In this document: positions 4,184 to 31,475 of the stretch, one piece after another | How positions within the stretch are numbered: the first letter of the stretch is position 1 | Layout: each line of letters begins with the position of its first letter | Assembly (NCBI GenBank): GCA_036374795.1 | Contig: DASUTC010000116.1 | Location: forward strand, 1 to 62,704 | DNA from: Herpetosiphonaceae bacterium | GTDB lineage: Bacteria; Chloroflexota; Chloroflexia; Chloroflexales; Kallotenuaceae | Direction of reading: 5' to 3' | Length of the DNA stretch: 62,704 bases | The notes under the pieces: generated by a model | Databases searched by the model: none | What the model saw: the letters and a program-made list of their open reading frames with translations, nothing else | What the model was told of the DNA's origin: nothing | Translations under genes and position numbers: made by a program

Positions 4184-6145
4184 TCATTTCGTGAAGGCAT
4201 AAACATATACACCACCCACATTATCAATATCAGTTGGGCCAATTTTACACTTAAATATAATGTTGAATCCCATCAACTTTAGCAGTCTTTCATAATGTTC
4301 ACAAGAAACTTTAAAGTCTCCCCATCCTTTTAGCCCAGACTCTAAGGCTCCTTCTTCTAAACGTTCCAAGATCGGATGGTTTTCTGCCTTGGCAATAGAA
4401 ATTATATGATGATGATACAATTCCAAAGCTCGTTTCCTCGCATTATCATCTTTATCATCATGTTCCGGCAAAAATTCATCTCCAACAATGACAACCCCAC
4501 CATCTTCAAGATTACTTTGGATATTTCTAAAATATTTAGGTTTATCCAAAAAGTAGATGTGATGATCTGCAAAAGAAGAGACGATAAACTTAAACTTACC
4601 ACCTGGATTGTATCGTCTACTATCTTTGTTCATCGGCTCAAATTTTGTATTTCGGCATTCCATGTCTGATATCAAGCGTGCCATGTTCTTCTTTAAGAGA
4701 TGGAAGCACGCCCAGTCAATCTCCATAGCGACAATGTCTAAGTTTTCAAGCTGTGCTAACCTCTTCGTAAATATTCCTGTTCCAGCACCCAGCTCTAAAA
4801 CTCGCTCCACAGAGCTTGTATCACTTCGGTACTGATTTATAAGTTCAATCATTTTATCCATCATTTGTGAGTAATAGGCATGTTCTTCTTCATGTTCATC
4901 ATACTCAGTAACTTCTATATAAGACGACATCTCTACCTGTCTTTTTCCAAATGCCCTAAATTCAGGAGTAAAGACTTTGTCTAACAAATCCTCTACTTGC
5001 CGATCATCCTCCACATTTATCGTCTTATCAATAAGAATTGCAATCTTAAGAATTCCAGATATAGCCTCTTCATGCCTGGATACTTCGGAGGCAAGGGTAG
5101 AAAAACGAATCATCTTTAGAGGGAGCGCACCTCGTTCCTGAGATGATGACTCGGCATAGTAGGCAAGGAGTGGTGTTGATGCACCTCCAACGATACTAAA
5201 ATCTTGAACGTAATCTGGATATTCACCAGCCAATCTATTGAAGCTCAAGGCATAAACGTTGTACTGGCTAGCGTGTCTTAGCAACATTGCCAGATTGGCC
5301 TTTAGATGATCACGTTCACGGAATACGAAAACTCGCGTACTATCTTTGTTAGTTGCTTTTCGTATCTCCTCACCCTCCTTTTGGGGCCAAAATTTCTCAA
5401 TGGCATCAACTATAGCGATAGCTTTCACAACTGGATTAAATGTCTTTAGCAAATTAACCAAATGCAAAGGATACAAAGTAAGGGGAACATCATAATAAGG
5501 ACCAGCCTCCTTTAAGCTAGTTTTGACCTGCTGTAATGAATCAAATATTACTTGTGTAAAGTATCTATTTTCCGCAAACCACTTCCTGTCTCGTACTTCA
5601 GCCAGTGTATCAGCTAATTCTTGATTAAGATGACCAAGGCCAATCGAAATATCTGAATGAACAGATGGAATTTCATTTAATTCCTTATCAAGATCTGCCC
5701 ACAAGTAGTCAAAGTTAATGTCAAGCTGACCTTGAAAGACCTTTTGGTCGCCTAATATCTCATTGATCGCAAAAACCAGCTTTCTTGTACCAGCCTTATC
5801 GGCCTTAACAGCATTGAATTGCTCTAGTGGTGGTTTAAGGTCGCTAGCTTCGAGGTCATATAAGTAGGGACACACAGAGCCTTCACCAGCAGTTTTTGAT
5901 AAAGCACCACTTTCAAACAATAACCAGGGAGCTTTCAAGTTCTCCGGTGTAAGGCACAAAATACCAAAGACACTCTCCCGTAATGCTGCATTGATAACCT
6001 CACTCCATCTTGCAGCAGCACGGATATCTACGGTCGATACAAAGACTTCTACCGGGGCAGTCTGAAAAACCCTTTTCAACCAGGGGGCTATAGCATCTGC
6101 TATTTGTCGGCTCCGTCGCCCCGACCAACTAATAAATATTTTCAT
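4184..6145 (-). CDS. TIR domain-methyltransferase fusion protein
   Basis: A 653-residue protein with three regions. Residues 1 to about 138 are a bacterial TIR domain: it opens KIFISWSGRRS, and WLLFESGALSK supplies the expected NADase glutamate (Glu78). About 195-425 is a region I do not recognise. About 430-653 is a class I SAM-dependent methyltransferase with motif I VLELGAGTG at 449-457 and acidic motif II AMEID. It lacks an NPPY/DPPY amino-methylase motif; SSFADHHI stands at motif IV, so a small-molecule or protein substrate is likelier than DNA. The ATG at 6145 has AGGAGC 7 bases upstream. Base composition is far more AT-rich than the ribosomal genes beside it, which suggests transfer. 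Such TIR proteins often act in anti-phage defence; that role here is inferred from the fold and the divergent ATPase gene nearby. Confidence 0.85.
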   Translation of the reverse strand: MKIFISWSGRRSRQIADAIAPWLKRVFQTAPVEVFVSTVDIRAAARWSEVINAALRESVFGILCLTPENLKAPWLLFESGALSKTAGEGSVCPYLYDLEASDLKPPLEQFNAVKADKAGTRKLVFAINEILGDQKVFQGQLDINFDYLWADLDKELNEIPSVHSDISIGLGHLNQELADTLAEVRDRKWFAENRYFTQVIFDSLQQVKTSLKEAGPYYDVPLTLYPLHLVNLLKTFNPVVKAIAIVDAIEKFWPQKEGEEIRKATNKDSTRVFVFRERDHLKANLAMLLRHASQYNVYALSFNRLAGEYPDYVQDFSIVGGASTPLLAYYAESSSQERGALPLKMIRFSTLASEVSRHEEAISGILKIAILIDKTINVEDDRQVEDLLDKVFTPEFRAFGKRQVEMSSYIEVTEYDEHEEEHAYYSQMMDKMIELINQYRSDTSSVERVLELGAGTGIFTKRLAQLENLDIVAMEIDWACFHLLKKNMARLISDMECRNTKFEPMNKDSRRYNPGGKFKFIVSSFADHHIYFLDKPKYFRNIQSNLEDGGVVIVGDEFLPEHDDKDDNARKRALELYHHHIISIAKAENHPILERLEEGALESGLKGWGDFKVSCEHYERLLKLMGFNIIFKCKIGPTDIDNVGGVYVYAFTK

Positions 6146-6271
6146 CTCCAAGCTCCTACACCAAGTTCTAGTTTGTTATTGTGGTGGAGAAAAGATATAC
6201 CAGCAATAATACAAGATTCATGTTCGTTTGAGAACCCCAGAGATAATCGGGAGAGAACGGAGATGGGTGTT

Positions 6272-6609
6272 TCAGAGGGGCTCGCGTGAAGGCCAGCGGA
6301 TGCTGACGACGATCGGGCCTCGGCCCGCCACGAGTGCGGCACATGCGGCCCCCACAGCACAAAATCGCCCTCATGCTCCAGCAGCACATCGCGATCGGGA
6401 AAGCTGATCCGAAAGCGTCCGCGCACCAGAATGCTGATCGTCGTGGCGTCGTTGGCGGACCACGTGGCGCCGGTCTGGCCTGCGGGATGATCGCCCCACT
6501 TGCTCTCAACCTCTGATGAGTGCAGCGGAGCGCCGGGCAGGCCCATGAAGTGGCCGACGAACCAGCCGCGCCGCGCTACCTCACGTGCATTTCCGGCGTA
6601 GATCTCCAT
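6272..6609 (-). pseudogene. Cupin-domain protein gene with a frameshift
   Basis: From the ATG at 6609 (preceded by AGGAGT) the frame reads MEIYAGNAREVARRGWFVGHF, then VKWG-like and HPAG motifs, SILVRGRFRISFPDRDVLL and GDFVLWGPHVPHSWRAE. This is a single-domain cupin, a small beta-barrel sensor or isomerase type. Right after WRAE the frame runs into unrelated residues. Shifting frame by one base near 6301 restores IVVSIRWPSREPL and a stop at 6272, which looks like the natural end. A single-base loss in the run GGCCCG explains this. The gene is therefore either recently broken or carries a sequencing error. It sits between the TIR gene and the divergent ATPase gene. Confidence 0.7.
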
Positions 6610-6826
6610 ACAACTCCTAGCAGCCATATTCATCGTTCGCAAAGCCGATCGCTTGCAAGCTCTGCTACACTATGCTTGGGCAGAACGATACTCACACATA
6701 CTAATTCCCCTGTTCAATCCTTGCCGACGATAACATACACTCGTATTGCGCGAAGCAGCGCTGGGCATCATAAGCATCTATCCCATCAGCATGGCTGGTG
6801 ATGCATGCATGTGAAGGAGCGGAGCG

Positions 6827-9800
6827 ATGAGCACAGCACCACTTGAGAGCGGAACATACGATTGGCGTCAGACGAAGTTATGGCAACTGCTTGAGCAAAC
6901 TGACAAACCGGAAGCCGAACCCGTCCGAACCACGCTTCAAGTGTGGCTGCCTACCATCCAGAAGATCTTGAATCAAGGAGGCACCGCTCCGCTGGATTTC
7001 ACGCTACACGATGCAGAACATTCCTTCCGAGTCGCCGAGCGCATGGTCGATGTTATACCGGACGATGTTTTAGCGGAGCTATCGACCTACGAGCTAGCGC
7101 TCCTGCTGCTGTCCGCCTACCTCCACGATATTGGGATGACCCCCGGCCAGAGTTTGCTCAGATCGCACCATGATTACCTGCTCACCGGCGACCGTCAAGG
7201 ACTTGATCAAGCACAGATCGACACCTTCCAAACCTGGCTCGACGATTGGAACGAAGATATAACCATTCCGCTTGCCGAGGGCACGCCCACACCGGCGACG
7301 CTCTGTAAAGCGCAATTGCTCATCACGCACTACTGCCGCGCACGCCATGTGGATTGGAGCGAGAAGTGGATCGACGACAACTTCACCGAGCAAAAACAAA
7401 AGCTTGGCTCCTACGCCCAATGGATCGAAGACCTCAAAACGCTGTGCCGCAGCCATCATCAAGGCTATGCCGAGCTCATGGAGACGCGCTTCGATCCCAA
7501 GCCCGTGGGAAGTGCGGGCATGGTCGTTCATCTGCGCTACCTCGCGGCTGTGCTGCGTGTGGCCGATATTCTAGAGTTCGATCCTGAGCGAACGCCGGAG
7601 GTCGTCTTCCAGCACCGCGCTGTGAGCCCAGGCAGCGCTATCTATTGGTATAAAGATCATTCCGTCACCTCTCTCTTCGACAACCGGCGGCTGACCATCT
7701 CCGCCGAGTCGCCGGATGCGCGGATTCACCGCGCGATCGAGATCATGACCGACGACATCGAGGCCGAGCTGCAACTTGTGCGCCGAATTGACGATGAGAA
7801 ACGTTTTGAAATCGCCAATTTTCAAGAGGAACCGCTCCCGCATCAGTGGAACATTCTTCCCGATGTGCGCCGTAACATTCGTCCCCGGCACGATGCCTAC
7901 GAATATATCGACGGCGCATTTCGCCCCGACACTCAAAAACTGCTGCAACTGCTATCCGGCAAAGAATTATATGGCGATGAGATGGTTGCCATTCGTGAGC
8001 TGCTGCAAAACGCTTTTGACGCGGTACGTGAGCAGATCGCGTATGAGCGGCTGAACAGGCAGCATCCGGGCGATCCCAAGTGGGAAGAAAGACTCGGCGA
8101 CATTCATGAGGTCGAAGTGCGCCTGGAATTCGATGGAGATGAGATCTGGCTGGTCTGCACCGACGACGGCGTAGGCATGACCAAAGCGATTATTCGTGAT
8201 TACCTGCTGGTAAGCGGCAACGCGCATCACCGTGATGTGCGCTTATTGGAGCGTCGCTGTAGGAAGGCAGGGTTTGAGCTTGGGCGTACCGGACAGTTTG
8301 GCATCGGCGTGCTCAGCTACTTCATGATCGCCGACCAGGTGCAGATCCGCACACGCCGCAGCGGTCTTGCCGGAGACGCCGAGCTAACCGGCTGGTCTTT
8401 CGAGACAGAGGGCATTGGATCGTTTGGTGAGCTGAGGAAGGATCAAGGATGGCGACAAGGCACGCAGGTGCGGCTGCGGTTGAGTCAGCAAGGAATCCAA
8501 GCGCTTGGAAAGTCACAATATGACTCCTTTGAAACCGAGTTCTCAGAGTCCCTAGAAACCCCTCATGGTAATCTTCAAGATCACATGCGTGTTAGATTAG
8601 CCGATTACCTCAATGACACGTTACGCTATGTTCCGTGCAACGTTCGATTGACTACGAATCTTAGCAAGGGCGCACTTCTTACTCTGAATCCCGGATGGAC
8701 GCGAGAGCCAGGCGACTTGTCAGGTATTTGGTCAGATATCGGAGAACTGATGAGTAGATCCACAGCACGTCAAAATACTGAGGATGAGCTGCTGCCTGCT
8801 CGACTTAGAGAGGAGCACGAAGCTAAACGCCAGAAAGACGAAGAGGAATGGGCCTCTTATAAGAGTCTACCTCACGAGATCCAGAGTTGTTTGACATGGG
8901 AGACAGTTGTGGGCAGCCTTCCCAACAACTTAGGAAGTTTTCGCATCCATATTCCCGTGTTTAAGCTTGAGGGAGGGCACTCACACTTTTTTGCACGCCT
9001 GGCGAAAGACGATGGTCAGATCAGTATAAGATTGCTTGGTGGTTGTCACTTTTACATTCCACAGGCCAAACTTTATATGAGCTGGAAAGGTATGGCTCTT
9101 GATTCAAATAGCGCACCTTTTGTGAGGTACTCTTACGTTAGAAGTATATTTGAGAATCCGCTAAAGAATGCAATCGTTGAGATAGATTGGCACAGTATGG
9201 AGGTTGGTGTTCTCTCGGTAAGTCGGGAGAAGATTATTTTAAGTGAGGTTGGAAAGGAGGCATTAGATTGGCTTCAACTGCCCATAAGAACAAAAATCGA
9301 AGAGTTTATATCCAAGAACCAAGACTCGCCTTTTGTCCAACTCAGCCAACTCCTAGCAGCAGAAGATCCTTCCATAGTAACTAAAGATACATGGTTATCT
9401 CTCAACCCATCTCAGGATCGTGGAGGAAAATGGGAAGCAGTTCAATTTCCCGCGATTGATCGCTGCAGTATTTTTAGATCACATTTGTTCGACATAGATA
9501 AGCTGTACTGGAAGGGAGAACGTGTCCACCAATTGATGCCAATACAACTATTCCAAGCAGAGAGATGGAGTTCAATGGGAGATGCTTACATATTAAGCTG
9601 GAGCAAATCTAATTACTTTGCCGACCGTCTCGTTAAGCTGAGACATAGTGAAGGTTCGATTGTTGTTGAGCTCTGGCTGCGCAAGCCTGCTTGGGGCAAT
9701 GCGGGTTACTTCGGTGATGTCAAAAGCACATTTCCACCAAGCTGGGCACGTCTTGCATATGTAACCATTAATCCTCAATGGACTGAGACAAGATATATTG

Positions 9801-10261
9801 GGAATAGGGATCATCCAATAGGCCAGGCAGCAGATCCTAATGTCGAAACATGGATCAAACAGGCATTTGGTGAGTTTCCCTGGATTAGTAAACTGGACCC
9901 TCGTCCACATAGAGACGCACTTCTCGCTGAAAGAGAGAAAGCTATCGGGTGGTTAGCTCGTGTTCTACAACAACCCAACAAAGATTTTTGGGATGCGCTC
10001 ACCGAACAAGAGGGGGCATTTTTGCGGGAAGTTTGGCAACTTATATTTGCTTCTACCCAACCAAGCCCTATAGAAACACCGATTTACAGTCTACATCAGG
10101 CGTTATTTAGTGTTAGTCAAAGGCCAGCGCGTTCTGTGCTCTGGATTCTTACTCCCGCATCCTGCGAAGTTATCGACGATCCGGCGGAGATTGAGAAATA
10201 TCTGCCCGATCCTGGGCCGGAGTGGACGCTAGCGGTGGTTGAGCGAGATGAGCAGGAGTGA
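6827..10261 (+). CDS. HD-domain / HSP90-type ATPase protein
   Basis: A 1144-residue protein. Residues 50-330 are an HD phosphohydrolase-like domain: His61 and His65 in LHDAEHSF, His100-Asp101 in YLHDIG, SHHQGY, and LRVADILEFD. About 355-560 is a GHKL (HSP90/MORC-like) ATPase with the N-box ELLQNAFDAV near residue 390, DDGVGM near 445, GQFGIGVLSYF near 488 and a GTQV(R)L motif. The last 550 residues match nothing I know. The ATG follows AAGGAGCGGAGCG. Base composition switches: the HD and ATPase part and the last 40 codons are GC-rich, while about 8520-10130 is much more AT-rich, as if the C-terminal region had been exchanged. HD and GHKL ATPases occur in prokaryotic conflict systems; with the TIR gene alongside, a defence role is plausible but unproven. 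Confidence 0.85.
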   Translation: MSTAPLESGTYDWRQTKLWQLLEQTDKPEAEPVRTTLQVWLPTIQKILNQGGTAPLDFTLHDAEHSFRVAERMVDVIPDDVLAELSTYELALLLLSAYLHDIGMTPGQSLLRSHHDYLLTGDRQGLDQAQIDTFQTWLDDWNEDITIPLAEGTPTPATLCKAQLLITHYCRARHVDWSEKWIDDNFTEQKQKLGSYAQWIEDLKTLCRSHHQGYAELMETRFDPKPVGSAGMVVHLRYLAAVLRVADILEFDPERTPEVVFQHRAVSPGSAIYWYKDHSVTSLFDNRRLTISAESPDARIHRAIEIMTDDIEAELQLVRRIDDEKRFEIANFQEEPLPHQWNILPDVRRNIRPRHDAYEYIDGAFRPDTQKLLQLLSGKELYGDEMVAIRELLQNAFDAVREQIAYERLNRQHPGDPKWEERLGDIHEVEVRLEFDGDEIWLVCTDDGVGMTKAIIRDYLLVSGNAHHRDVRLLERRCRKAGFELGRTGQFGIGVLSYFMIADQVQIRTRRSGLAGDAELTGWSFETEGIGSFGELRKDQGWRQGTQVRLRLSQQGIQALGKSQYDSFETEFSESLETPHGNLQDHMRVRLADYLNDTLRYVPCNVRLTTNLSKGALLTLNPGWTREPGDLSGIWSDIGELMSRSTARQNTEDELLPARLREEHEAKRQKDEEEWASYKSLPHEIQSCLTWETVVGSLPNNLGSFRIHIPVFKLEGGHSHFFARLAKDDGQISIRLLGGCHFYIPQAKLYMSWKGMALDSNSAPFVRYSYVRSIFENPLKNAIVEIDWHSMEVGVLSVSREKIILSEVGKEALDWLQLPIRTKIEEFISKNQDSPFVQLSQLLAAEDPSIVTKDTWLSLNPSQDRGGKWEAVQFPAIDRCSIFRSHLFDIDKLYWKGERVHQLMPIQLFQAERWSSMGDAYILSWSKSNYFADRLVKLRHSEGSIVVELWLRKPAWGNAGYFGDVKSTFPPSWARLAYVTINPQWTETRYIGNRDHPIGQAADPNVETWIKQAFGEFPWISKLDPRPHRDALLAEREKAIGWLARVLQQPNKDFWDALTEQEGAFLREVWQLIFASTQPSPIETPIYSLHQALFSVSQRPARSVLWILTPASCEVIDDPAEIEKYLPDPGPEWTLAVVERDEQE

Positions 10262-10292: not shown

Positions 10293-12428
10293 CTACCGCT
10301 CCACCGCCACGCTGTGGACCATCACACTGAGCGGACGCGGATCGGCGCTGGCCGGATCGGCGCGCATCGGCAGGTAGGTCGGCGCGTGGAGCCGCAGGCG
10401 AAGCTGACGCTGACCGGCAAGCGCGGGCGGTACGGACAGGCGATACACCCGCCACTGCGCATCGGGACGCAGCACGGCAGCCGGAGCGTTACCGACCGAA
10501 ATCTGAAGCGGCCCGTCCAGCGGGATCGGCGCGGCGAGCACCATGCTGACGGTATTCCCTGCGGCAAGCGGCTGCTCCAAGGGAAGCACAATCTCACCGT
10601 CGCCCAGCAGCCAGCGAAAGGTCAGATCGCCGCTGCGCTCACTGCCCGCAAAGCCCGCGACATAGCCAAGATCGAGCGCATCGTCGCCGAGCACCAGCGA
10701 CTCGCGAGGCTCGACCGGCACATAATCGAGCGCCCAGCGCTGCGCATCCTCGCCCGCCCGCTCCTCAGCCGGATTGAGCAGCGGGCGCGCATGGGATTCA
10801 TCGCCAACGGCACGGCTGAGCACACCCGCGACCAGCCCGGAGCGGCGCGAGTCGTTGGACGAGAGCACGGCCAGGGCCTCGGATCTGCGGCCCTGCGCAG
10901 CCAGCGTCAGCGCCAGCGACAGCTCGCTCTCGACAAATTCGGGATCGACCTTCAGCGCGGCGCGATACTCACGCTCAGCCGCTTGGTAGTCGCCGCGCGC
11001 AGACGCCTGATCACCGCGCCACACGTAAAGCTCGCGCTGCACACCCCGCCCGATGATCTCAGGATAGTTGCGATAGGTCAAGAAGAGCGCGGCAAGGATG
11101 ATCGCGGTGCTGTAGACGATTGCCCCGCGCCAGTGGAGATCGCGCAGGCTGGCCCCTAGACGCGGGGCGTAGCTCAGCGTCCAACCGGCGTACAGCCCCA
11201 GCAGCAGCCAGATCGACAGCAGGTAGCGCGGCTCGACATGAAAGACCAGCACCGTCGCGAAGGAGTAGAGCAGCCACAGGCCCAGCAGCGCCTTGAAGGC
11301 GCGATCGGTGGCGGGATGCAGCAGGCCGATCACGCCTGCGAGCGAGGCGACAAGCCAGAGCAGATCGCCGAAGAGGCCGAGCGGCGCGGCCTCGCGCAGC
11401 GGACGGGTAAAAAAGCTGCGCTTAACCCAAAAATCCTCGACAAACTGCGCCTTCCAGATATGGAGAAAGGTCGGCCAGACGTTGCGGAACGGACGCAACG
11501 GCTCCGCGCTCAAGATCTCACGCACGCGCGCAGAGGCGTATGCCTGCCGATCGGCCTGCGGAAGCTGGCGCAGTTCCTCGATCTTGGCGTTGCGCTGATC
11601 GGGGCTGCCGAGATCCAGCCAGAGATTGATCGGGCCGAGCGTATCGATCGGGATGAAGCGCTGATAGACGATCCAGTTGCGCGCGGTCCACGGCAGCACG
11701 ATGATCAGCGTGCAGACCGCCAGCACCGCAAAAGGCACGACCGACGAGCGCAGCGCGATCCGCGCCAATTGGGAGCGCGCCAGCTTCTCTGCGAGGCCAC
11801 GCTCCGGGCGCGGCCAGTTGCGCAGCAGCAGCCAGGGCACCGCAAAGACCAGCGCGTACAGCGCCGGAGAGCGTGTCAGCGCGGCCATGCCCAGCACGAG
11901 GCCGGAGAGCACCAGATCGCGGTAGCGTCCGGTCTGATCGAAGCGCAGCAGCAGCCACAGATGCAGCGTGAACAGAAACAGATAGATCGGCTCGGAGAAG
12001 AGCGTCGCGGGCAGCTCGACAAACGGAAACCAGACCGCCCAGAATCCGGCGAAGAGCAGCCCCGCGCGGCGGTTGAACAGGCGCGTCGCCAGGGCATAGC
12101 ACAGCGGCACCATCAGCACGCCGAGCACCGTTTGAAAGCCCTGGATCAGGCGCACCCCGAACGACGGAGCCTGGTTCAGCAGCAGCGCGAGCTTGAGCCA
12201 GGCCGCGAAGACCCAGACATGAAAGGGTGGCCGGATCAGCCAGGAATCGTCGACGTACTGGCCGGTGACAGCAAAGCGCAGCGCCCGCTGGAAATAATCG
12301 CCGTCGTCGGCGTTGGAGAACTGCGGCCACAGCGGATTGATCGTGAGATACCAGATGCGCAGCGCCAACGCGATCAGCAGCAGCAGCAGTAGCACCCAGT
12401 GTCGGCGAAGCGTGTATACAACCTTCAT
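10293..12428 (-). CDS. PMT/ArnT-type membrane glycosyltransferase with TPR-like tail
   Basis: A 711-residue polytopic membrane protein and the last gene of a five-gene leftward cluster. The first membrane segment (residues about 9-27) is followed by a luminal loop with ADDGDYFQRAL, the acidic position expected of GT39/GT83 enzymes that take sugars from a polyprenyl carrier. Eight or more hydrophobic segments follow. About residues 515-600 form a TPR-like repeat (ARGDYQAAEREYRAALKVDP), and a beta-rich domain ends the protein. I start it at the ATG at 12428, which overlaps the previous stop as ATGA; the longer open frame upstream is antisense shadow. The acceptor is unknown. Confidence 0.75.
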   Translation of the reverse strand: MKVVYTLRRHWVLLLLLLIALALRIWYLTINPLWPQFSNADDGDYFQRALRFAVTGQYVDDSWLIRPPFHVWVFAAWLKLALLLNQAPSFGVRLIQGFQTVLGVLMVPLCYALATRLFNRRAGLLFAGFWAVWFPFVELPATLFSEPIYLFLFTLHLWLLLRFDQTGRYRDLVLSGLVLGMAALTRSPALYALVFAVPWLLLRNWPRPERGLAEKLARSQLARIALRSSVVPFAVLAVCTLIIVLPWTARNWIVYQRFIPIDTLGPINLWLDLGSPDQRNAKIEELRQLPQADRQAYASARVREILSAEPLRPFRNVWPTFLHIWKAQFVEDFWVKRSFFTRPLREAAPLGLFGDLLWLVASLAGVIGLLHPATDRAFKALLGLWLLYSFATVLVFHVEPRYLLSIWLLLGLYAGWTLSYAPRLGASLRDLHWRGAIVYSTAIILAALFLTYRNYPEIIGRGVQRELYVWRGDQASARGDYQAAEREYRAALKVDPEFVESELSLALTLAAQGRRSEALAVLSSNDSRRSGLVAGVLSRAVGDESHARPLLNPAEERAGEDAQRWALDYVPVEPRESLVLGDDALDLGYVAGFAGSERSGDLTFRWLLGDGEIVLPLEQPLAAGNTVSMVLAAPIPLDGPLQISVGNAPAAVLRPDAQWRVYRLSVPPALAGQRQLRLRLHAPTYLPMRADPASADPRPLSVMVHSVAVER

Positions 12429-27409: not shown

Positions 27410-30154
27410 TCAGATTCCTTCAGCGCCTTCGACGGGCGGGCCGCTAAACTTCTGCGGATCGCGGTTGAAATAGATGATCCGCTTCCAGACCGGCGTCACC
27501 TGATCGGCGAAGATCACCACCAGATCGTTTGGCCGGGCCTGCCGCAGCGCGTGGTCGACAGCCTCTAGCTCCGGCAGGATCGTCGTGATCTGCGCTTCCG
27601 GCAGCCCGCCGTTGAGCGCGCCCTGCTTGACCAGCTCCGCCGTCTCGCCGGAGCGCCGCCCGCGCAGGCTGTTATCCTGCTTGATAATCAGCCGATCGAA
27701 CATGCGCGCGCCAAGCTCGCCCAGCCGGATCAGATCTTGATCGCGGCGGTCGCCCGCGCCGGAGAGCACGCCGATCACCTGCTTGTGGTTTGGCCGCAGC
27801 TTCGCCACAAGATCGACCATCGGCTCAAGCGCCGCCGGATTATGGCCGTAGTCCATGATCACGCGGAACGGATGCTCATCGAAAATGTTGAGCCGTCCGG
27901 GCGTCTGGTAGAACGACGTGGTGAACGTGCGCAGCGCCTGGCGAATCGTCTCGACTGGCACCTCCAGCGAGTAGGCGATTGCGGTCGCCGCCAGCGCATT
28001 CGCCACGTTGACGCGAGCCTTGCCCTCAAGCGTCGCCGGGATCAGATGCGTCCAGAGCAGCGGAATATACTGCTCCTCGTCGTAGATCGCGATCATCTCG
28101 CCGCGCACGCCCTGCTGAAGCACCACCGCGACGCCACCCTCGGCGATGTGCTCGCGCAGATGCTCAGGTCCGTCGTCGCCGCCGTGCATCGAGAAATAGG
28201 CGATCCGGCCACCCGCCTGCTCGCGCATGCCCACGGTCAGCGGATCGTCGGCGTTGAGCACGCTGGTGCCGTTCTTCTGCACTACCTCTACCACCAGCGA
28301 CTTGATCCGCGCCAGATCTTCGAGCGTCTCGACGCCGCGCAGCCCCAGGTGATCGGCCTGCACGTTGAGCACCGCGCCGACATCGCAGCGGTCGAAGCCC
28401 AGGCCCTCGCGCAGAATACCGCCGCGCGCCGTCTCCAGCACCGCCGCCTCGATCGTTGGGTCTTTAAGCGCCATGCGCGCGCTCCACGGCCCGGTCAGAT
28501 CGCCGCGCATGTACAGCTCGCCGTCGATATAGATTCCGTCGGTCGTGGTCAGGCCCGTGCGCAGGCCGTGCATCTTGAGCATATGCGCGACCATCCGCGA
28601 GGTCGTCGTTTTGCCGTTGGTGCCGGTGATCGCCACGACCGGAATGCGGCTCGGCGCGGTCGGCGGGAAGAGCATGTCGATCACCGGCCTGGCGACGTTG
28701 CGCGGCGTGCCCTCGGAGGGCTGAAGATGCATCCGAAAGCCCGGCCCGGCGTTGACCTCGACGATCCCACCGCCGCTCTCCCGCAGCGGCGCGGAAATAT
28801 CCGGCGAGATAATGTCGATGCCCGCGATGTCCAGGCCGATCACGCGCGCGGCACGACGTGCGATCTCGATGTTGTCGTAGTGGATCTCGTTGGTCCGATC
28901 GATCGCGGTGCCGCCCGTGGAAATATTCGCCGTCGAGCGCAGGTAGAAGACCTCGCCCGCAGGCAGCACGGTATCGAGCGTGTAGCCCGCATGCTCCAGC
29001 AGCCGCTCGGCCTGATCGTTGACCGTGATGCGCGTCAGCACCTTCTCGTGGCCGATGCCGCGCCGGGGATCGCGGTTGACGATCGCGATCAGCTCGGCGA
29101 TCGTGTGCTTGCCATCGCCTTTGACGTGCGCGGGAACGCGCTCGGCGACCGCCACGACCTGATCGTTGATCACCAGCACGCGATAGTCCTTGCCGCGCAG
29201 ATAGCGCTCGACCAGCACCTTCGAGCGGTACTGTGCCGCCTGCTCATAGCCCCAGCGCACCTGATCGGCGTCGTGCAGGTTGAGCGACACGCCGCGCCCG
29301 TGGCTTACATCGAGCGGCTTGGTGACGACTGGATAGCCGATGCGCTCGGCGGCGGCGACCGCTTCGTCGGCGGAGCGGACGACGATGTTACGCGGCACCG
29401 GCAGACCAACATCATCCAGCAGCCGATTCGTCAGCTCTTTGTCGCTGGCCGTCTCGACGGCGATGTTCGAGGTATGGCCGGTGACGCTGGCGCGGATGCG
29501 CTTCTGGTGCTTGCCGTAGCCCAACTGCACCAGGCTATGATCGTCGAGGCGGATCGCCGGAATACCACGGCGACGCGCCTCCTCGACCAGCGCTCCGGTC
29601 GTCGGGCCGAGCGCCAGCCGCTCCGCCAGCCGGATCAGATCCTCAAGCTCGGCTTTGAAATCAAGTGGCGCGTCCGGCTCCAGCACTCCCGCGACGCGGT
29701 CGGGCGTGAGCAGATCGAGGCCCTGCACGCCCTGAAGCTCCGGCGGCAGCAGATGATTGATCAGCCGTAGCGCCAGACGAGCCGCCAGCAGGCCCACGCG
29801 CTCCTCGATGTACGAGTAGACGACGTAGTAGATTCCTTCGGCCTCGCCGCTGCTGCGGGTCTTGCCGTAGGTCACGGGCGTGCCCGCCAGCGATTGCAGC
29901 TCCAGCGCGATATGCTCGGAGATATGGCCGATCCACGTCCCCTCACGCAGCCGACGTACAAAGCCGCCGGCCTCACCGTAGGAGCAGCCGTGCTCGTGCA
30001 GCGTCGGGATCAGCTCAAGCAGCCGGTCGTTGAACGTGCCGAGCTTGCTGGAGGGATAGTCTTCGAGCTGTCCCAGATCGAGCTTAAAGCGAATGACCGG
30101 GCGGTAGCCGTACGGATTCGGGCCACGATAGACTCGCGTTTCAAGGACACGCAT
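27410..30154 (-). CDS. cphA: Cyanophycin synthetase
   Basis: A 914-residue protein. The N-terminal domain contains RGPNPYGYRPVIRFK and GTWIGHISEHIALELQ. The central ATP-grasp domain (about 220-480) has PVVTKPLDVSHGRGVSLN and EVNAGPGFRMH. The C-terminal Mur-ligase domain (about 490-880) carries the P-loop AITGTNGKTTTSRMVAH and MDYGHNPAAL. CphA adds aspartate and then arginine to the growing cyanophycin polymer, a nitrogen and carbon reserve, with one ATP per step. Length and motif order are those of bona fide CphA. The ATG at 30154 is preceded by TGAGGTG. Cyanophycinase lies directly upstream, separated by a 224-base repeat-filled gap. Confidence 0.95.
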   Translation of the reverse strand: MRVLETRVYRGPNPYGYRPVIRFKLDLGQLEDYPSSKLGTFNDRLLELIPTLHEHGCSYGEAGGFVRRLREGTWIGHISEHIALELQSLAGTPVTYGKTRSSGEAEGIYYVVYSYIEERVGLLAARLALRLINHLLPPELQGVQGLDLLTPDRVAGVLEPDAPLDFKAELEDLIRLAERLALGPTTGALVEEARRRGIPAIRLDDHSLVQLGYGKHQKRIRASVTGHTSNIAVETASDKELTNRLLDDVGLPVPRNIVVRSADEAVAAAERIGYPVVTKPLDVSHGRGVSLNLHDADQVRWGYEQAAQYRSKVLVERYLRGKDYRVLVINDQVVAVAERVPAHVKGDGKHTIAELIAIVNRDPRRGIGHEKVLTRITVNDQAERLLEHAGYTLDTVLPAGEVFYLRSTANISTGGTAIDRTNEIHYDNIEIARRAARVIGLDIAGIDIISPDISAPLRESGGGIVEVNAGPGFRMHLQPSEGTPRNVARPVIDMLFPPTAPSRIPVVAITGTNGKTTTSRMVAHMLKMHGLRTGLTTTDGIYIDGELYMRGDLTGPWSARMALKDPTIEAAVLETARGGILREGLGFDRCDVGAVLNVQADHLGLRGVETLEDLARIKSLVVEVVQKNGTSVLNADDPLTVGMREQAGGRIAYFSMHGGDDGPEHLREHIAEGGVAVVLQQGVRGEMIAIYDEEQYIPLLWTHLIPATLEGKARVNVANALAATAIAYSLEVPVETIRQALRTFTTSFYQTPGRLNIFDEHPFRVIMDYGHNPAALEPMVDLVAKLRPNHKQVIGVLSGAGDRRDQDLIRLGELGARMFDRLIIKQDNSLRGRRSGETAELVKQGALNGGLPEAQITTILPELEAVDHALRQARPNDLVVIFADQVTPVWKRIIYFNRDPQKFSGPPVEGAEGI

Positions 30155-30173
30155 GGAAGCACCTCAATAAACG

Positions 30174-30370
30174 AAGAACAAAGAACGGGCGCCCTCTGGG
30201 CAAACAAAGAACCGAGTGCCAGACCGGGTGCCCTTTGGGCATGGTACCCCGGCATGGGCACCCGGCACACCAAGAACCGGGAACTCAGAACTTTGAGCCT
30301 CCGGCCCCGATGCGTGATCCCTAAGCTCTGATCTCGTTGTTCCGTTGTTCTTTGTTTGCTCCTTTGTCTG
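30174..30370. repeat. Heptamer-arm repeat element in the cphB-cphA gap
   Basis: The left arm (30174-30186) reads GAAGAACAAAGAAC, the right arm (30334-30357) TTGTTCCGTTGTTCTTTG, inverted relative to each other. The core at 30223-30245 differs at one base in 21 from the rplK-rplA core, and a second degenerate copy lies at 30188-30202. GAACTCAGAACTTTGAG at 30281-30297 belongs to the GAGTTTC-type tracts. The element fills nearly all of the 224 bases between two genes expected to be co-transcribed. Confidence 0.75.
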
Positions 30371-30378
30371 CCTGCCAC

Positions 30379-31275
30379 TCAAATACCCTCGCCTTCGGCG
30401 TACAGACCCGCCTCGAACGGCAGTGGCGGCGTCGCCGGGATTACAGGATCGCGGTGTGTTATATCAAATTGATAGCCATGAGTGAGCAGATGGAAGCGCA
30501 TGTTGTGGATCGCCAGCGGCGCGTGATCCGAGATGCGGTAGATGTCGTTATAGCTCATGTCGGTGCCGTCGACAACTGTGACCGAGCCTCGGCCAATCAC
30601 GGTCATCATGCGCTGCCCATCGACTTCGATCGCGGTGTCTTCGTCGAGGCCAACGCCCAGCAGGTAGGGGTTGTGCGCCAGGGCTGTCACCAGCCGCCCG
30701 GTGCGGCCACGCGCGCCAAAGTGCTGATCGACCAGCAGCCGGTTGATCAGGCCCAGCCCCGGCGCGAAGTGCATCATCGATTTGCGGGGCGTGATGCCGC
30801 TCAGGCCGTAGGCCATCATATGCTGGCAGACGGCGGAGGCTCCCGCGCTGGTGCCCGCGACCACACAGCCGCCACGGTAGGCGCGGCGGATGCGCGTCGC
30901 GGCGGGCGTGCCCCCCAGGATCGTCATCAGCTTGAGCTGATTGCCGCCGGTCAGAAAAATGCCGGTCGCATCGGCGATCGGCGCGAGCATCGACTCGTCG
31001 CAGCACTGCTCGCGCGAGTAGAGCTTGAGCACATAGACCTTCGCCGCGCCCAGCTCAAGGAAGATGCGCTCGTAGATCTGCGAGACAAGCTCGTAAATCT
31101 CCGAGGCCGTAGCGATAATCGCGATGTGGCTATTCGTGCCACCCGCCAGCTCGACAAACCGGCGGAGAATCGTGCGATTGCCGACTTTATCTTCCGCACC
31201 GCCGATCATCATCAAGGTGCCGGTATTTGGAAAGGGCTCGGTGCCCGCCGGATCATAAGAATAAGAAGCCGTCAT
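30379..31275 (-). CDS. cphB: Cyanophycinase
   Basis: A 298-residue serine exopeptidase of the PSTS/class I glutamine amidotransferase-like fold. GTLMMIGGAEDKVG opens the protein, GIFLTGGNQLKL follows, and GGCVVAGTSAGASAV contains the nucleophile serine. It releases beta-Asp-Arg dipeptides from cyanophycin. I set the start at the ATG at 31275: a TACAAT -10 box lies only eight bases upstream, so the mRNA may be leaderless, and no Shine-Dalgarno site is visible. The open frame extends 29 codons up but through the promoter. Together with cphA it gives a complete cycle of storage and mobilisation. Confidence 0.93.
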   Translation of the reverse strand: MTASYSYDPAGTEPFPNTGTLMMIGGAEDKVGNRTILRRFVELAGGTNSHIAIIATASEIYELVSQIYERIFLELGAAKVYVLKLYSREQCCDESMLAPIADATGIFLTGGNQLKLMTILGGTPAATRIRRAYRGGCVVAGTSAGASAVCQHMMAYGLSGITPRKSMMHFAPGLGLINRLLVDQHFGARGRTGRLVTALAHNPYLLGVGLDEDTAIEVDGQRMMTVIGRGSVTVVDGTDMSYNDIYRISDHAPLAIHNMRFHLLTHGYQFDITHRDPVIPATPPLPFEAGLYAEGEGI

Positions 31276-31283
31276 GAGGGCGA

Positions 31284-31319
31284 ATTGTAGCATAAAGACG
31301 ACATTCGTTGAGACGAATG
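31284..31319 (-). promoter_or_regulatory. Promoter and palindromic operator of cphB
   Basis: TACAAT (minus strand, 31284-31289) is a good -10 box. A perfect inverted repeat, CATTCGT at 31302-31308 and ACGAATG at 31313-31319 with a 4-base spacer, covers the -35 region, where no consensus hexamer is seen. This placement fits a repressor or activator site for regulated cyanophycin use. Confidence 0.5.
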
Positions 31320-31360
31320 CCGCCCGCTTGCTTTTCCAGGAATTCAGAGGTCCGGAGCGC

Positions 31361-31475
31361 AAGGAAACAAAGGAGCAAGGAGGTTGAACGTTTTGTTCTT
31401 TTGTGCTCGTGTTCTTTTATTCAGCTCTCAGCGCTTGGTTGGTGGTTCTCGTCTTGTTCTTTGCAGGAGTTACGC
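31361..31475. repeat. Degenerate heptamer tract in a 336-base gap
   Basis: The gap 31276-31611 between cphB and the CitE-like gene holds no gene. After the cphB promoter come AAGGAAACAAAGGAGCAAGG (31361-31380), TTTTGTTCTTTTGTGC (31391-31406) and TCTTGTTCTTTGCAGG (31452-31467), imperfect copies of the TTTGTTC tract in both orientations. The remainder shows nothing recognisable. Confidence 0.55.

What the first reader, a model, noticed from the sequence alone, without database searches (positions are those of the whole stretch)
4184..10261. Candidate undescribed defence island: TIR-methyltransferase and HD/HSP90-type ATPase genes, divergent
Seen: two large divergent genes, separated by 681 bases with a broken cupin gene between them, lie in an AT-richer patch between the ribosomal operon and a glycosyltransferase cluster. 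Known: TIR domains in bacteria are often NADases triggered by phage, HD domains often cleave nucleotides, and GHKL ATPases of the HSP90/MORC type occur in several conflict systems. Inference: the two proteins may form one system, the ATPase sensing and the TIR protein executing, with the methyltransferase as modifier or control. I know of no named system with this pair.
Basis: partly seen in the sequence, partly recalled or inferred. Interest (0 to 1): 0.85.

Follow-up and report, generated by a model that had tools for sequence, protein, structure and literature searches.

The report
Inserted pair of likely phage-defence genes
A bacterium of the phylum searched here as Chloroflexota carries a 6-kb foreign insert holding two uninterrupted genes that look like phage-defence enzymes, one with an NAD-cutting TIR domain fused to a methyltransferase and one with an HD domain fused to an HSP90-type ATP switch; each part is of a known kind, the TIR-methyltransferase fusion was found nowhere else, and whether the two work together is open.

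Summary
P0001 (4184-6151, minus) is TIR + ~265 unassigned residues + class I SAM methyltransferase. P0002 (6827-10261, plus) is HD-CE + HSP90-type GHKL ATPase + long C-terminus. A cupin remnant lies between. Two same-family genomes have the empty site, with rplL 61-66 bp from the same glycosyltransferase gene, so the ~6 kb block is inserted. The two-gene-system claim is only partly supported. The pair was not seen in other genomes: none of 128 relatives of the TIR has the methyltransferase or an HD-HSP90 neighbour, and about 15 HD-HSP90 loci have no TIR-methyltransferase. Composition differs between the genes (40% and 51% GC; cupin remnant 66%), which suggests separate arrivals. Against that, the closest relative of P0002 found, in Nostoc (44% identity over the aligned part), carries a TIR fused to its N-terminus and has lost most HD active-site residues; caspase fusions occur in related proteins. 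So this family seems to swap effectors, TIR among them. P0002 keeps its HD residues and may act alone. Best reading: two probably self-contained abortive-infection proteins in one acquired patch (0.5); a cooperating pair is the main rival (0.33). The methyltransferase lacks DNA-methyltransferase motif IV. New variant of a known kind.

The parts
4184..6151 (-). P0001: N-terminal TIR (residues 1-165), unassigned middle (about 166-428), C-terminal class I SAM methyltransferase (about 429-655). Probable start ATG at 6145 (653 aa). GC 40%.
   Evidence: TIR modelled at high pLDDT and matched to SPARTA TIR-APAZ, Z 14.0, 145 aligned, rmsd 4.3, 21% id
5657..6145 (-). TIR domain; W76 and E80 form the WxxxE motif (likely catalytic Glu)
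   Evidence: E80 invariant and W76 at least 90% conserved in an alignment of 26 TIR proteins; E77 is the catalytic residue mutated in SPARTA TIR-APAZ (PMC10474274)
4184..4867 (-). Methyltransferase domain; SAM motif I ELGAGTG present, no DNA-MTase motif IV
6206..6234 (-). promoter-like -35/-10 for P0001 (TTCTCA-17-TATTAT), weak
   Evidence: number of promoter-like sites in the region is not above chance
6286..6609 (-). probable 5' remnant of a cupin gene (about 108 codons), GC 66%; not at this site in relatives and not found in 82 genomes of the order
6827..10261 (+). P0002: HD-CE domain (57-316), HSP90-type GHKL ATPase (364-579), about 565-residue C-terminus. GC 56% in the first half, 45-47% in the second.
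6995..7774 (+). HD-CE domain with HD residues H61, H100-D101, H174, H210, D247 intact
7916..8563 (+). GHKL ATPase with E391/N395, D446xGxG, GxxGxG intact

Best explanation
The ~6.2 kb between rplL and the glycosyltransferase gene is horizontally acquired DNA carrying two probably self-contained abortive-infection-type defence genes that accumulated at one site. P0002: the HSP90-type ATPase works as an ATP-driven clamp that, on a phage-dependent signal taken up by the long C-terminus, releases the HD phosphohydrolase domain, which degrades nucleotides or a nucleotide signal. P0001: the middle and methyltransferase-like region acts as sensor or gate; on triggering, TIR domains oligomerise and cleave NAD+ through E80, stopping the infected cell. 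Shown: domains, intact active-site residues, insertion relative to two same-family genomes, TIR and caspase fusions in relatives. Inferred: sensing, activity, phage protection, independence of the two genes.
For: Insertion: empty site in two same-family genomes. Both ORFs long and intact. P0001's TIR belongs to a family of short stand-alone proteins, also found in viral contigs and on plasmids; 128 loci, median 293 aa, maximum 459. HD-HSP90 genes elsewhere mostly stand alone, some on plasmids near Shedu, restriction or Abi genes. All HD and GHKL key residues are present in P0002. In the Nostoc relative with a fused TIR, H61, H100, H210 and D247 are changed or missing, as if the TIR replaced HD as effector, so a protein with an intact HD need not depend on a TIR. 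Different GC of the two genes plus a host-like cupin remnant between them point to separate arrivals.
Against: No activity was tested. The TIR-HD-HSP90 fusion suggests that this HSP90 subfamily can drive a TIR, which favours partnership. The two genes sit back to back within 681 bp inside one insertion. The Nostoc copy is itself interrupted by a stop, so its lost HD residues could be decay rather than effector replacement. GC also varies within P0002, so composition is a weak argument.
Confidence: 0.5

Rival explanations
1. One split system: P0002 is the sensor and ATP switch, P0001 the TIR NADase effector it licenses, as in the single-chain TIR-HD-HSP90 of Nostoc; the methyltransferase-like region is the docking or gating part.
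For: Nostoc TIR-HD-CE-HSP90 fusion, 44% identity to P0002 over the aligned part, followed by a piece resembling P0002's C-terminus; Zymomonas HD-HSP90 followed by a TIR gene; a Verrucomicrobial GHKL ATPase gene 46 bp upstream of a TIR of P0001's own family; caspase fusions show effector variety in the HD-CE families; both genes in one insertion.
Against: Pair not found elsewhere; 0 of 128 TIR-family loci with HD-HSP90; the Nostoc TIR is of another TIR family; divergent, not operonic; different GC; P0002 keeps its own HD residues.
Confidence: 0.33
2. The block is not defence: P0002 is a chaperone-like regulator and P0001 a TIR-gated metabolic methyltransferase.
For: Closest methyltransferase models are small-molecule, peptide or rRNA type; no phage assay exists; HSP90-type ATPases are chaperones in general.
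Against: TIR family found in viral contigs and plasmids and matched by PADLOC; HD-CE is fused to TIR, caspase and NACHT and matches the HD part of the DRT candidate UG24; sporadic distribution and insertion.
Confidence: 0.1
3. Decaying cargo: recently acquired genes, of which one or both are already inactive.
For: Broken cupin between them; Nostoc and at least two other HD-HSP90 relatives (L243, L232) are interrupted.
Against: Both ORFs are full length with all key residues intact.
Confidence: 0.07

Closest known systems
TIR-TM family of PADLOC (PDLC03016)
   Same: P0001 residues 3-165 match strongly (E 1.1e-50)
   Different: Relatives found are 156-459 aa with other tails; the match stops at residue 165 and P0001 carries a methyltransferase instead
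HD-CE (PF24391) HSP90-type proteins, e.g. Nonomuraea, Hymenobacter, Lachnospira
   Same: HD-CE followed by GHKL ATPase, same invariant residues
   Different: P0002's C-terminus resembles only the Nostoc protein among those found; overall identity to the others about 17-24%
Nostoc sp. NMS9 TIR-HD-HSP90 protein (L241, P0005)
   Same: 44% identity over the aligned part; C-terminal stretch also similar by eye
   Different: TIR is fused in front, HD residues mostly lost, ORF interrupted
SPARTA TIR-APAZ/Ago
   Same: Best fold match of the TIR domain (Z 14.0, rmsd 4.3, 145 aligned); WxxxE glutamate
   Different: No Argonaute gene beside P0001; APAZ not seen
iHD-CE / wHTH-HSP90_Na-assoc proteins with caspase domain (L242, L097)
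   Same: Effector domain in front of an HD-CE-type domain in a protein with a wHTH-HSP90_Na-associated Pfam domain
   Different: Caspase rather than TIR; the GHKL domain itself is not a Pfam hit there

Membership tests
TIR NADase | TIR fold | tested here: met
   Pfam TIR_2 above cut-off; high-confidence model of 1-165 matches TIR structures
TIR NADase | conserved catalytic glutamate (WxxxE) | tested here: met
   W76/E80; E80 invariant in the 26-row alignment
TIR NADase | NAD+ cleavage | not testable with these tools
   needs an assay
PADLOC TIR-TM | match over the whole 293-position model | tested here: not met
   only model positions 1-161 match; the L226 relative matches 1-280
HD-CE (PF24391) | score above gathering cut-off | tested here: met
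   165 bits against 27
HD-CE (PF24391) | metal-site residues H..HD..H..H..D | tested here: met
   H61, H100, D101, H174, H210, D247 invariant among nine HD-HSP90 proteins
HSP90/GHKL ATPase | N box E/N, DxGxG, GxxGxG | tested here: met
   E391, N395, D446-G448-G450, G489-G494
HSP90 chaperone (HtpG) | HtpG-type equivalog score | tested here: not met
   87.9 and 71.8 bits against cut-offs 455 and 371; match ends at about residue 579
DNA methyltransferase (N6A/N4C or C5) | motif IV [DNS]PP[YFW] or PCQ | tested here: not met
   no match in P0001
Class I SAM methyltransferase | Pfam methyltransferase model above cut-off | tested here: met
   PF13489 44.7 bits against 27
SPARTA | short Argonaute partner and APAZ domain | tested here: not met
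   the insert holds only the two genes and a cupin remnant; no APAZ/Ago model among the Pfam or PADLOC hits of P0001-P0003
MADS (mad2) | other mads genes beside it | tested here: not met
   mad2 model matches only the methyltransferase domain (E 1.6e-13); P0002 and P0003 match no mads model

The most novel reading that the evidence does not exclude
A two-gene immune system in which an HD-HSP90 ATP switch licenses a TIR NADase in trans, with a SAM-binding methyltransferase domain as gate or sensor on the TIR protein: an HSP90-driven NAD-depletion system not described in the papers and models searched.
Probability: 0.28. Interest if true: 0.75.

Novelty: new variant of a known kind. Interest (0 to 1): 0.45.

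Why it matters
If the HD-HSP90 family is a switch with exchangeable effectors (HD, TIR, caspase, perhaps small membrane proteins), one core explains several uncharacterised bacterial conflict proteins and gives a testable link between HSP90-type ATPases and TIR/NAD immunity, a pairing otherwise known from plant NLR immunity, where HSP90 is a cofactor (general knowledge). The TIR-methyltransferase fusion is an architecture I could not find elsewhere.

Tried and rejected
Close-relative scans of viral contigs with P0001 or P0002 alone, and with P0002 + Nostoc, found nothing; the nine-sequence HD-HSP90 alignment had no stretch conserved enough to scan with. DNA-level search of plasmids: no match. 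AlphaFold2 of P0002 without an alignment was useless (mean pLDDT 34.9); in P0001 only the TIR was modelled, so the fold of the middle and methyltransferase regions is untested. Profile of the TIR family against PDB sequences: none. A profile of HtpG proteins did not extend past the ATPase domain of P0002; a VSRE stretch near residue 793 resembles the HSP90 middle domain by eye only. Literature: no held paper on HD-CE-HSP90 or TIR-HSP90 defence found in ten searches; PMC8195603 and PMC7159879 treat related conflict systems, with no occurrence of GHKL and no passage on this pair, and the Burroughs and Aravind 2020 J Bacteriol paper is not held. Rejected: the methyltransferase as R-M-type DNA modifier. 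Considered: assembly chimera; unlikely, because both flanks are collinear with relatives. No clear direct or inverted terminal repeats at the block ends.

Full report
What is there. P0001 (4184-6151, minus) carries a TIR domain (PADLOC TIR-TM E 1.1e-50 over residues 3-165; TIR_2 above cut-off), about 265 residues with no convincing database match, and a class I SAM methyltransferase. P0002 (6827-10261, plus) carries HD-CE (165 bits), an HSP90-type GHKL domain (E 5.4e-25 to an HSP90-family model; about 30% identical to HtpG proteins over residues 364-555) and a C-terminus with no convincing match.

It is an insertion. In two genomes of the same family (L273 from G150, L274 from G869) rplL is followed within 61-66 bp by the orthologue of the glycosyltransferase gene that ends at 10293 in the window. 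Neither has the cupin, P0001 or P0002 at that site. A same-genus genome has a different gene after rplL (L272). GC is 40% for P0001, 66% for the cupin remnant, and 56% falling to 45-47% along P0002, against about 66% for the flanking genes. I infer more than one acquisition step. No clear terminal repeats were found.

Distribution. P0001 has no full-length relative in 400 Chloroflexota genomes, in the 82 genomes of its order, in the plasmid or phage collections, or among the best 80 of 348 TIR relatives in a scan of about 85,000 species. That scan used two TIR patterns, so it is not exhaustive. In 128 TIR-family loci the proteins are 156-459 aa, and none carries the methyltransferase. The remaining 491 residues have only weak methyltransferase matches on plasmids (E 0.007 or worse). 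HD-CE proteins are sporadic: over the cut-off in 10 of 400 Chloroflexota, 21 of 194 in the second phylum (a Nostoc locus was the centre; only two of those are strong) and 12 of 249 in the third (a Pseudomonas locus was the centre).

Neighbourhoods. I read the surroundings of about 26 HD-CE loci, about 15 of them with HD-CE plus HSP90 in one protein or in adjoining pieces. Most stand alone among unrelated genes. TIR links are: a TIR fused to HD-CE-HSP90 in Nostoc (L241; Pfam TIR_2 E 1.3e-16, HD-CE E 1.3e-21); a TIR-AAA-TPR gene 975 bp after HD-HSP90 in Zymomonas (L095); and a TIR-HD-CE-NACHT-WD40 protein in the window's order (L285). Caspase domains are fused to iHD-CE/HD-CE proteins in L242 and L097. 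In two Chloroflexota loci HD-HSP90 has, downstream, the same small protein with predicted membrane spans (L284, 42 bp; L243, about 0.5 kb after the second piece of an interrupted gene; E 1e-51). A GHKL ATPase without HD lies 46 bp upstream of a TIR-TM gene in a Verrucomicrobial genome (L226).

The key comparison. The Nostoc protein is the closest relative of P0002 found (44% identity over the aligned part). It has a TIR in front, and at the positions invariant in nine HD-HSP90 proteins it has lost H61, H100, H210 and D247 while keeping D101 and H174. Its GHKL boxes are kept. I infer that the TIR replaced HD as effector behind the same HSP90 switch. The copy ends at a stop, so decay is a rival reading. 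If the inference is right, it cuts both ways. This HSP90 subfamily can drive a TIR, which favours the pair idea; and P0002, with its HD intact, does not need one, which favours independence.

Mechanism. TIR: high-confidence fold for residues 1-165, best matches SPARTA TIR-APAZ (Z 14.0, 145 aligned, rmsd 4.3); in that system TIR tetramerisation turns on NAD+ cleavage and E77 is catalytic (PMC10474274). P0001 has the WxxxE glutamate at E80. The methyltransferase has motif I but no DNA motif IV, so a gate, sensor, small-molecule or protein methyltransferase role is more likely than restriction-modification. P0002: ATP clamp by analogy with HSP90 (family knowledge) releasing an HD phosphohydrolase; unproven.

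Verdict. Observation confirmed; interpretation partly supported. I put 0.5 on two separate single-gene systems at one site, 0.33 on a working pair, the rest on non-defence or decay. New variant of a known kind, interest 0.45.

Noticed in passing
L241:7612-10683: Nostoc sp. NMS9 protein with TIR, degenerate HD-CE and HSP90 domains, interrupted by a stop; closest relative of P0002 found.
   Followed up: yes
L284:6635-7174 and L243:6895-7419: Homologous small proteins (174-179 aa) with two or three predicted membrane spans beside HD-HSP90 genes in two Chloroflexota genomes; no Pfam or PADLOC match; candidate effector.
   Followed up: partly
L226:5645-9038: GHKL ATPase gene (771 aa) 46 bp upstream of a full-length TIR-TM gene, same strand; looks like a two-gene operon.
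   Followed up: partly
L242:8378-13771 and L097:4411-9039: Caspase domain fused to iHD-CE/HD-CE and wHTH-HSP90_Na-associated domains.
   Followed up: partly
L285:8635-12435: TIR-HD-CE-NACHT-pentapeptide-WD40 protein in the same order as the window genome.
   Followed up: partly
L284:7216-10170 and L062:5425-8334: HD-CE of these proteins matches the PADLOC model of the DRT candidate RT_UG24 (54-58 bits), so UG24 reverse transcriptases appear to carry a related HD domain.
   Followed up: no
window 27410-31362: By eye, ORFs resembling cyanophycin synthetase (27410-30154) and cyanophycinase (30379-31362) side by side; not searched.
   Followed up: no
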